Shown here in pieces: positions 3,554 to 21,357 of a stretch of 27,071 bases of DNA; the stretch's first letter is position 1; every line of letters begins with the position of its first letter. The position numbers and the translations under genes were made by a program. The DNA comes from a virus: the IMG/VR virus record IMGVR_UViG_3300045135_000870, positions 1 through 27,071 of that record; one strand, written 5' to 3'. The notes beneath the pieces were generated by a model that ran no database searches, was not told the origin of the DNA, and saw nothing but the letters and a program-made list of their open reading frames with translations.

Positions 3554-4405
3554 ATGATTTTACTTGACTTCAGCGGCATTGCCATTGCACCTATCGTAAT
3601 GGGTCAGGCCAAATATGATGACGAGAACCTTATCCGTCACATGATTCTAAACTCAATCCGTATGTACAAGCAGAAGTTCAAGGACTACGGTGACATGGTT
3701 ATCGTTGCTGATGGCGGTGGTAACTGGCGTAAAGACGTCTATCCTGAATATAAGGGTAAACGTAAGCAGAACCGTGATGAATCCAAGATCGACTGGGATA
3801 AGGCATTCCAGAATATCAACATGGTGCTTGAAGAGATCAAAGTAAATATGCCCTGGAAGGTTATTCACCAGTGGGGATGCGAGGCAGACGATACTATTGC
3901 AGAACTTGTTAAGTGGACACAGGAGTTTGGTAACTATGAAAAGGTTATGATCGTGTCTGCTGACCATGACTTTATCCAGCTGCAGAAATATGACAACGTG
4001 CAGCAGTTCTCTCCGAACACTAAGAAGTTCGTTAAAGATCCTAATCCGCGTCTGTACCAGCTGGAACATATCCTAAAAGGTTGTTCTGGTGATGGTGTAC
4101 CGAATGTGCTATCTGACGATGATACGTTCCTTGTAGAAGGTAAGCGTCAGAATGTTCTTTCGAAGAAAAAGAAAGAAGCATTACTCGAAGATCCACATGC
4201 ACTTGGTGAACAAGTGTACCGTAACTATCTCCGTAACAAAAAGATGATTGTTCTTACAGAAGAGTCAGAATGTCCTGATTCTGTAAAGCAAGAAATCATA
4301 AATAAATTTGAATCATATGAGACGCCTGCTCGTAACAAGGTGTTACCTTATCTTATCTCGAAGCAGTGTCGTTTGCTAGTTGAAGTAGTAGAGGAATTCT
4401 TTTAA
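3554..4405 (+). CDS. rnh: RNase H / 5'-3' exonuclease (T4 Rnh-like)
   Basis: This 283-residue protein aligns along its length with T4 RNase H, a FEN/PIN-fold 5' nuclease that removes RNA primers and adjacent DNA from lagging-strand fragments. Acidic metal ligands are visible: Asp5 in LLDFSG, Asp53 in VADGGGNW, GCEADDTIAEL (E110, D112, D113), SADHDF (D137, D139) and GCSGDGVPNV (D180). The arrangement LQKYDNVQQFSPNTKKFVK is shared with the T4 enzyme. An early-type promoter precedes it. The next gene follows after 1 nt. It would work with the phage replisome and a single-strand-binding protein encoded elsewhere. Confidence 0.93.
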   Translation: MILLDFSGIAIAPIVMGQAKYDDENLIRHMILNSIRMYKQKFKDYGDMVIVADGGGNWRKDVYPEYKGKRKQNRDESKIDWDKAFQNINMVLEEIKVNMPWKVIHQWGCEADDTIAELVKWTQEFGNYEKVMIVSADHDFIQLQKYDNVQQFSPNTKKFVKDPNPRLYQLEHILKGCSGDGVPNVLSDDDTFLVEGKRQNVLSKKKKEALLEDPHALGEQVYRNYLRNKKMIVLTEESECPDSVKQEIINKFESYETPARNKVLPYLISKQCRLLVEVVEEFF

Positions 4406-4406
4406 G

Positions 4407-4826
4407 ATGGCTAGAACATTAGACGTATTTGAGGTTTTTGAATTATTTGAAAAAGCAGGTACACGTAAAGATAAAATTGAAGTGTTGAAGAAGCACGAAT
4501 CTTGGGCGCTCAAAGATATCCTCAAAGGTGCATTAGATCCAAAAATTGAATGGCTGCTTCCGAAGGGTGAAGTTCCATATACGCCCTGTGAAGCTCACAA
4601 TGCACCATCATCACTTCTCAGAAAAAATAGAGATTTTCGTTATGTCGTGAAAGGCGGTACTGGAGGACAGATGCCGGCTATCAAACGTGAAAAGATCTTC
4701 CTTGGGATTGTAGAATCGATTCATCCCAAAGATGCTGAGCTGGTGTGCGCTATGATCAATAAGAAGCTGCCAGTGAAGGGTTTAACTGTAAAAATTGTAG
4801 AGGAGGCATTCCCTGGACTTTTATGA
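4407..4826 (+). CDS. Conserved phage protein (DUF6433-like)
   Basis: This 139-residue protein begins one nucleotide after rnh and is evidently co-transcribed with it. The pattern DVFELFEKAGTRKDKIEVL followed by WALKDILKGALDP and WLLPKG occurs in a family of T4-like phage proteins of unknown function that I recall as DUF6433. The family label is from memory. It has no catalytic motif, signal or membrane segment. It is mixed alpha/beta in character, with a helical N-terminal third. Its steady position beside replication genes suggests a replication or nuclease accessory role, which is inference. Confidence 0.65.
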   Translation: MARTLDVFEVFELFEKAGTRKDKIEVLKKHESWALKDILKGALDPKIEWLLPKGEVPYTPCEAHNAPSSLLRKNRDFRYVVKGGTGGQMPAIKREKIFLGIVESIHPKDAELVCAMINKKLPVKGLTVKIVEEAFPGLL

Positions 4827-20531: not shown

Positions 20532-20565
20532 GGGGGTTTACAAACATACATATATAGCTTATATT
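20532..20565 (+). promoter_or_regulatory. Early-type promoter of the tRNA/structured-RNA array
   Basis: GGGGG, TTTACA (20537-20542), a 17-bp spacer and TATATT (20560-20565), with AAAAAAA upstream at 20516-20522. The expected start near 20572 lies just before the first structured RNA, so the array appears to be transcribed from here. Confidence 0.85.
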
Positions 20566-20579
20566 ACTACTATAACAAC

Positions 20580-20704
20580 AAGATCACTTAAGGCTGCACA
20601 CCATCAGCGACCAAACGTAAAAGGTAGGTATGCGCCGGCAGCAGAACCCGTAAAAGCCTGTGAGGGCGGAAGTGTTAAAGGGTGTGTTAGCTTTAAGTGA
20701 TCTT
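20580..20704 (+). ncRNA. Unidentified structured RNA E1 in the tRNA array (125 nt)
   Basis: The ends form a perfect 12-bp inverted repeat, AAGATCACTTAA (20580-20591) with TTAAGTGATCTT (20693-20704). It continues inward as GGCT/AGCT (one G-T) and, after one bulged T, GCACACC/GGTGTGT, giving about 23 pairs. The 78-nt core is non-coding and has no tRNA D- or T-arm. It starts about 8 nt after the predicted transcription start and ends 2 nt before tRNA-Asn, so it should be released by tRNA processing. T4 encodes two stable RNAs of unknown role (RNA C and D) in its tRNA cluster, a precedent by position and size only. Confidence 0.75.
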
Positions 20705-20706
20705 AT

Positions 20707-20781
20707 TCCGGATTAGCTCAGCGGTAGAGCAGTTGACTGTTAATCAATTGGTCGTAGGTTCGATCCCTACATCCGGAGCCA
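20707..20781 (+). tRNA. tRNA-Asn (GTT)
   Basis: Acceptor TCCGGAT/ATCCGGA, anticodon loop CTGTTAA giving GTT, T-arm GTAGG-TTCGATC-CCTAC, G73 and encoded CCA. Confidence 0.95.
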
Positions 20782-20878: not shown

Positions 20879-20953
20879 GAGGGTGAAGTGTTAATGGTTG
20901 CACGTCGGTCTCCAAAACCGAAAGAAGGGGTTCGATTCCTCTCACCTTTGCCA
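20879..20953 (+). tRNA. tRNA-Trp (CCA)
   Basis: Acceptor GAGGGTG/CACCTTT with two G-T pairs, anticodon stem TCGGT/ACCGA with loop CTCCAAA giving CCA, T-arm AGGGG-TTCGATT-CCTCT, and G73 as expected for Trp, with encoded CCA. The last base is also the first base of structured RNA E2's outer repeat. Confidence 0.9.
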
Positions 20954-21087
20954 TTACTTTGGTGATACACTGCTCGGTAGCATAACTGAAACATAGGTGT
21001 TCAGACCCTTGTTAGCAAATTCCTGAGACCATTCCTAGGTTCACGTCTCATATTGACTAATAGTAAACAGTGTATCTCCAAAGTAAT
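20953..21087 (+). ncRNA. Unidentified structured RNA E2 in the tRNA array (135 nt)
   Basis: The ends form a 20-position inverted repeat with one T-T mismatch: ATTACTTTGG-T-GATACACTG (20953-20972) and CAGTGTATC-T-CCAAAGTAAT (21068-21087). Inside, TGAGAC/GTCTCA (21024-21029 with 21045-21050) and CTGAA/TTCAG (20986-20990 with 21000-21004) predict two further hairpins. If the RNA began at 20964, it would end GTGTATC-T-CCA, like a tRNA acceptor with a discriminator and CCA, but no D- or T-arm is present. It fills the whole gap between tRNA-Trp and tRNA-Ile. Confidence 0.72.
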
Positions 21088-21162
21088 GTCTCATAGCTCA
21101 GTTGGTAGAGCATTCCACTGATAAGGGAAAGGTCACTGGTTCGAGTCCAGTTGAGACAACCA
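21087..21162 (+). tRNA. tRNA-Ile (GAT)
   Basis: Acceptor TGTCTCA/TGAGACA, D-arm GCTCAGTTGGTAGAGC, anticodon loop CTGATAA giving GAT (the top stem pair is an A-G mismatch), T-arm ACTGG-TTCGAGT-CCAGT, A73 and encoded CCA. The first base overlaps the E2 repeat. Confidence 0.92.
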
Positions 21163-21251: not shown

Positions 21252-21357
21252 GCGAGATGCGGTACATTATAGGGCATGTCCTAAGATGTACTGGACTATT
21301 AGGGAAAGGCGCTAAGTACCGGTAGTAGAAACCATAAAGGTTTCCATGCTCGCTCCA
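21252..21357 (+). ncRNA. Unidentified tRNA-like structured RNA E3 (106 nt)
   Basis: GCGAGATG (21252-21259) pairs with CAT-g-CTCGC (21345-21353) with one bulged G, followed by T and CCA, which looks like an acceptor end. CGGTAC/GTACCG (21260-21265 with 21316-21321) stacks inward. GAAACC-ATAAA-GGTTTC (21328-21344) sits exactly where a T-arm would be but lacks the TTCRA loop. No anticodon arm is evident. It ends the tRNA array just before the next promoter. It may be a degenerate tRNA-like RNA or the third member of the same class as E1 and E2. Confidence 0.65.

What the first reader, a model, noticed from the sequence alone, without database searches (positions are those of the whole stretch)
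20580..20704. 125-nt structured RNA (E1) opening a tRNA array, with a 23-pair closing stem
A 12-bp perfect inverted repeat plus inner helices closes a non-coding 125-nt segment. It begins about 8 nt after a strong phage promoter and ends 2 nt before tRNA-Asn. It is one of three such elements alternating with five tRNAs (E1-Asn-Ser-Trp-E2-Ile-Lys-E3). Its stem is far longer than a tRNA acceptor, and it has no open reading frame or terminator T-run. T4 stable RNAs C and D are a positional precedent of unknown function; the manA RNA motif of marine phages is another candidate identity.
Basis: partly seen in the sequence, partly recalled or inferred. Interest (0 to 1): 0.75.

Follow-up and report, generated by a model that had tools for sequence, protein, structure and literature searches.

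The report
New stem-caged phage RNA beside tRNAs
Marine phages carry a small, previously unlisted folded RNA, locked inside a long double-stranded stem, that sits where tRNA and tmRNA processing would cut it free, and its sequence suggests that two copies pair with each other.

Summary
The 125-nt element E1 (20580-20704) is real and is a conserved RNA. It folds far better than shuffles (z -4.8) and is closed by a 23-pair stem starting about 7 nt after a sigma-70-like promoter. It matches no Rfam family and is not manA, T4 RNA C or T4 RNA D. Homologues were found on about 25 IMG/VR phage contigs (12 distinct sequences aligned), one copy per matching record, and none in GTDB genomes (pattern scan), isolate phages or plasmids. 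The inner core is nearly invariant, while the closing stem changes sequence but stays paired (12 of 16 stem pairs with two-sided changes). The inner hairpin loop holds a 6-8 nt palindrome in six of seven distinct loops, suggesting a homodimeric kissing loop. Homologues lie before tRNA-Asn, before tRNA-Trp, ahead of small genes and, in three phages, exactly in the intervening sequence of a permuted tmRNA. E1 belongs to a wider pattern: long-stem elements are about 8-fold enriched beside phage tRNA genes, and stems and cores are exchanged. Best explanation: an exchangeable sRNA cassette released by tRNA/tmRNA maturation, protected by its stem and probably dimerising. The target is unknown and no transcript was tested.

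The parts
20537..20565 (+). sigma-70-like promoter TTTACA-17-TATATT
   Evidence: the extended form GGGGGTTTACA..TATATTA occurs 3 times in the window against 0 in shuffles
20580..20704 (+). E1 RNA, 125 nt
   Evidence: fold z -4.76; model R1 match 102.8 bits, by construction since the window is in the model
20580..20602 (+). P1 closing stem, 5' arm (23 nt)
20681..20704 (+). P1 closing stem, 3' arm, U20687 bulged
20614..20629 (+). near-invariant 5' core strand (includes 5' sides of P3 and P4)
   Evidence: alignment A1
20631..20643 (+). P5 hairpin UGC-[GCCGGC]A-GCA; palindromic loop 20634-20639
   Evidence: P5 pairs covary; loop palindromes
20644..20667 (+). near-invariant 3' core strand GAACCCGUAAAA.CCUG.UGAGGG (3' side of P4; P3 with 20621-20624, or the alternative hairpin 20656-20659/20664-20667)
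20707..20781 (+). tRNA-Asn(GTT); its 5' end is the RNase P site that would form the 3' end of E1
   Evidence: the processing is inferred
20952..21088 (+). E2, second stem-caged element between tRNA-Trp and tRNA-Ile (stem family A)
   Evidence: fold z -4.67; stem conserved in 14 scan hits (alignment A2)
21252..21353 (+). E3, third element after tRNA-Lys, weaker and without homologue
   Evidence: fold z -3.04; no homologue

Best explanation
E1 is a member of a new phage RNA family: a ~75-nt conserved core inside an exchangeable closing stem. Shown: the structure, the family, the stem covariation, the palindromic loops and the placement. Inferred: the tRNA operon transcript starts with E1, RNase P cutting at tRNA-Asn frees its 3' end, the long stem protects the product from exonucleases, and two copies pair through the palindromic loop. 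The same placement logic holds for homologues in permuted tmRNA, where the core fills exactly the segment that maturation removes, and for E2-type elements that abut tRNAs. The released RNA then acts in trans; binding or decoying a host or phage protein or RNA is my preferred reading but is not shown.
For: Homologues: an nhmmer profile of three sequences finds the family at E 1e-21 to 1e-13 for full-length members, and a covariance model gives 77-139 bits for members with no other match at E<5 in 668 kb; one copy in each of 18 records that match. Covariation: 93.5% of cells paired, 50 cells with two-sided changes, 0/500 shuffles; slid controls 34-43% paired. Loops GCCGGC, UCGCGA, UCCUAGGA, GCUAGC, CCAUGG, ACUAGU are palindromes; the seventh, GCUGGC, is one with G.U pairs; chance is 3-10% per loop; no other complement within the element. 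Placement: 2 nt before tRNA-Asn (window), about 4 nt before tRNA-Trp (L172 group), and between CCA and GGGG of permuted tmRNAs L180, L189, L190. Long stems are 2.2 per 10 kb near tRNAs against 0.29 elsewhere in loci not chosen for stems. Stem family A usually starts inside the CCA of the preceding tRNA.
Against: No expression data. In L171, L175, L182, L183 and L179 the element lies between protein genes with no adjacent tRNA, so release by tRNA processing cannot be general. In L057 and L169 the next tRNA is 100-140 nt away. P3 and an alternative hairpin (UCC/GGA) are mutually exclusive and the data do not decide between them. Dimerisation rests on loop sequence alone.
Confidence: 0.5

Rival explanations
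1. E1 is a cis-acting 5' leader: a stable 5'-terminal structure (or ligand-sensing leader) that protects or tunes whatever transcript follows, tRNA operon or small gene.
For: E1 starts within about 8 nt of a promoter in the window and close to one in L183, which share TATATTACTA(C/G)TATAAC; in L171, L175 and L182 it precedes a conserved ~70-aa gene.
Against: In L180, L189 and L190 it lies inside the permuted tmRNA gene, not at a 5' end; no terminator-like site was found; a leader does not require a palindromic loop.
Confidence: 0.25
2. The elements are processing or spacing stems only: long stems that recruit RNase III or keep neighbouring tRNAs from misfolding, with interiors free to drift.
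For: Stem families are conserved around very different interiors (E2 family); stems abut tRNAs.
Against: The E1 core is near-invariant across unrelated stems and contexts, the opposite of a drifting filler.
Confidence: 0.12
3. A small self-cleaving or otherwise catalytic RNA that separates itself from tRNA or tmRNA.
For: Highly conserved unpaired residues (ACGURA, CGUAAAA, GUGAGGGA) in a compact core, and location at RNA boundaries.
Against: No match to any ribozyme family in Rfam; RNase P would already provide cleavage at these sites; no conserved site at the element ends.
Confidence: 0.06
4. DNA-level element: the inverted repeat is a recombination or mobile-element end and the RNA fold is incidental.
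For: Modules are exchanged at element boundaries: L005 keeps E1 at 99% but has a different tRNA-Asn.
Against: Helices P1 and P5 use G.U pairs and compensatory changes; one copy per record; no transposase context seen.
Confidence: 0.05

Closest known systems
Phage T4 stable RNAs C and D (rnaC, rnaD)
   Same: 119-139 nt non-coding RNAs encoded in a phage tRNA cluster
   Different: No sequence or model similarity to E1; T4 RNA C ends in a tRNA-like T-arm, E1 does not
GOLLD and ROOL RNAs
   Same: Phage RNAs near tRNA islands that form homo-oligomers partly through kissing loops (PMC12286853)
   Different: Hundreds of nt long; no Rfam match to E1; E1 core is about 75 nt with one palindromic loop
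Permuted tmRNA intervening sequence (RF04321 context)
   Same: In L180, L189 and L190 the E1 core is this segment
   Different: The window has no tmRNA at E1; other permuted tmRNAs (L011, L171) carry unrelated interiors
manA RNA motif
   Different: No match at E 10

Membership tests
Rfam families (4227, release 15) | covariance-model score at or above gathering | tested here: not met
   no credible match in E1 or the L057 homologue
manA RNA (Rfam) | covariance-model match | tested here: not met
   none up to E 10
T4 RNA C/D | sequence or structural homology | tested here: not met
   nhmmer and R1 searches of the T4 tRNA region gave no hit
T4 RNA C/D | discrete stable RNA processed from a tRNA transcript | not testable with these tools
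   needs RNA from infected cells
tRNA or tmRNA | cloverleaf or tRNA-like domain | tested here: not met
   ARAGORN and RF00005 miss E1
GOLLD/ROOL | Rfam model match | tested here: not met
E1 family (this work, model R1) | core GGUAGGU..GAACCCGUAAAA.CCUG, P4, P5, covarying closing stem | tested here: met
   the window sequence is part of model R1, so its score there is by construction
Homodimerising kissing-loop RNA | self-complementary hairpin loop kept through sequence change | tested here: met
   six of seven distinct loops perfect, one with G.U
Homodimerising kissing-loop RNA | RNA dimer in solution or in cells | not testable with these tools
   needs native gel, SEC-MALS or structure

The most novel reading that the evidence does not exclude
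A portable, homodimerising phage RNA domain of a new class is placed, within exchangeable stems, wherever tRNA or tmRNA maturation will excise it, so that phages use their tRNA arrays as a general expression and release platform for swappable small RNAs acting on the host.
Probability: 0.35. Interest if true: 0.85.

Novelty: new variant of a known kind. Interest (0 to 1): 0.66.

Why it matters
The untranslated spacers of phage tRNA arrays are usually left unannotated. Here they hold a conserved RNA family with covariation, absent from Rfam, whose core is shared by tRNA arrays, gene leaders and permuted tmRNA. This makes the old question of what T4-type RNAs C and D do more approachable: there is now a covariance model, a predicted dimer interface and predicted processing sites for an RNA in the same position.

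Tried and rejected
manA and all other Rfam families: no match for E1. Homology to T4 RNA C or D: none. Isolate phages and plasmids by blastn: no credible match. The genome contigs pattern scan gave 18 hits, all judged chance by profile. A second, looser viral pattern added only chance hits. A search for the E1 stem letters found only L005's contig, because stems are not conserved in sequence; the core pattern worked instead. The syntenic locus L020 has a different structured sequence at the E1 position. Literature searches found no description of this family in the held papers; subscription papers were not covered.

Full report
What is there. The window is a 27-kb virus record with a PhoH-like protein closest to cyanophages (about 51% identity) and a phage exonuclease family member, so probably a T4-like marine phage (inference). 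ARAGORN finds 11 tRNAs. E1 lies between a sigma-70-like promoter and tRNA-Asn; its fold is z -4.76 below shuffles.

Finding relatives. Blastn of E1 against isolate phages gave nothing credible. Protein and promoter anchors gave related loci. L005 carries E1 at 99% identity, but its tRNA-Asn is a different sequence. A systematic stem search found, in L057, an element upstream of tRNA-Asn whose interior matches E1 while the stem is entirely different. A core pattern then gave 28 viral hits, of which all but L185 and L192 fit the profile. The covariance model R1 separates members (77-139 bits) from everything else and finds exactly one copy in each matching record, including records of 221 and 342 kb. 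Scans of GTDB genomes, plasmids and isolate phages gave only chance hits or none.

Structure. Alignment A1 has 12 distinct rows. P1 (10-23 pairs) changes sequence throughout but pairs: of 16 pairs counted, 12 have changes on both sides. Over the whole structure 93.5% of cells pair against 78.5% in shuffles and 34-43% in slid controls, and 50 cells change on both sides (0/500 shuffles). These rows are related, so the shuffle count is not a probability; the slid controls are the better guide. P4 (GGU/ACC) is invariant, and P5 shows two-sided changes at two of three pairs. P3 (CAGG/CCUG) is nearly invariant and competes with UCC/GGA, which has one two-sided change, so that part is unresolved.

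The loop. P5 closes loops that hold GCCGGC, UCGCGA, UCCUAGGA, GCUAGC, CCAUGG, ACUAGU or GCUGGC. Six of these seven distinct loops contain a perfect palindrome of at least 6 nt; the seventh is self-complementary with G.U pairs. A random loop of these lengths does so 3-10% of the time. The complement occurs nowhere else in the element, so pairing between two molecules is the simplest reading. It is an inference from sequence; the 8-nt palindrome of L169 could instead form a short internal hairpin.

Context. E1 homologues precede tRNA-Asn (window, L005, L057, L169) and tRNA-Trp (L172 group), lie between protein genes (L171, L175, L182, L183, L179), or fill the intervening sequence of permuted tmRNAs confirmed by RF04321 (L180, L189, L190). 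In L179 the upstream gene is a homologue of the window's 68-aa ORF upstream of E1 (by inspection of the translations).

A wider class. E2's arms are conserved in 14 stretches from a viral scan, around very different interiors, and several interiors end in a T-arm stacked on the stem. A second stem family (TCTGTTTTCACATGCAC) and a third (ACTCCCC) occur in related arrays. The E1 cores of L057 and L169 carry stems of the TCTGTTTTCA type, so stems and cores are exchanged. In 145 loci not chosen for stems, long stems occur at 2.2 per 10 kb within 400 nt of tRNAs and at 0.29 per 10 kb elsewhere (14 against 32 elements).

Mechanism. The common denominator of the tRNA and tmRNA placements is that maturation cuts next to the element. 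I therefore infer release as a stem-protected small RNA, probably a dimer, acting in trans; the leader reading remains a serious rival because some members have no tRNA nearby. Precedents for oligomeric, tRNA-adjacent phage RNAs exist (GOLLD and ROOL, PMC12286853), but E1 is not a member of those families by any test made here.

Limits. No transcript data; only seven distinct loop variants; hosts unknown; all members are from metagenomic virus records.

Noticed in passing
L144:1713-1774; L167:1501-1561 (Rhodococcus phage Francesca); L168:1501-1535 (Sulfitobacter phage pCB2047-A): A second conserved core (ACUCG..GACCGUCCCGAUAGUAAGAGCRAAGGUC, pseudoknot-like) is shared by phages of very different hosts and is not annotated.
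   Followed up: partly
L163:361-478, 599-764, 769-873: Three tandem E2-type elements with the same stem and different interiors.
   Followed up: no
L050 and L111, tRNA-Lys to tRNA-Val spacer and beyond: E2-type element apparently split within its T-loop-like sequence by an insertion carrying an ORF and tRNA-Val.
   Followed up: no
upstream of the elements in L057, L165, L169: TTTGAAAATTT, resembling the rRNA boxA antitermination signal, precedes TCTGTTTTCA-type stems; an extra AAACAGA upstream could pair with the 5' arm instead. Recalled resemblance, not tested.
   Followed up: no
L044, L087, L102, L131 tRNA spacers: Two further conserved structured spacers: TTACGATGG..CCATCGTA (Asp-Val or Ala-Asp) and AGGATCG..CGATCCT (Ser-Ala or Pro-Pyl).
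   Followed up: no
L020:3944-4015 and 4106-4455: Degenerate tRNA-like sequences with long stems between tRNA-Asn, Ser and Trp.
   Followed up: partly
L144:1942-2048: A tRNA-like gene with an insertion in the D-arm region that ARAGORN misses but RF00005 scores at 36 bits.
   Followed up: no
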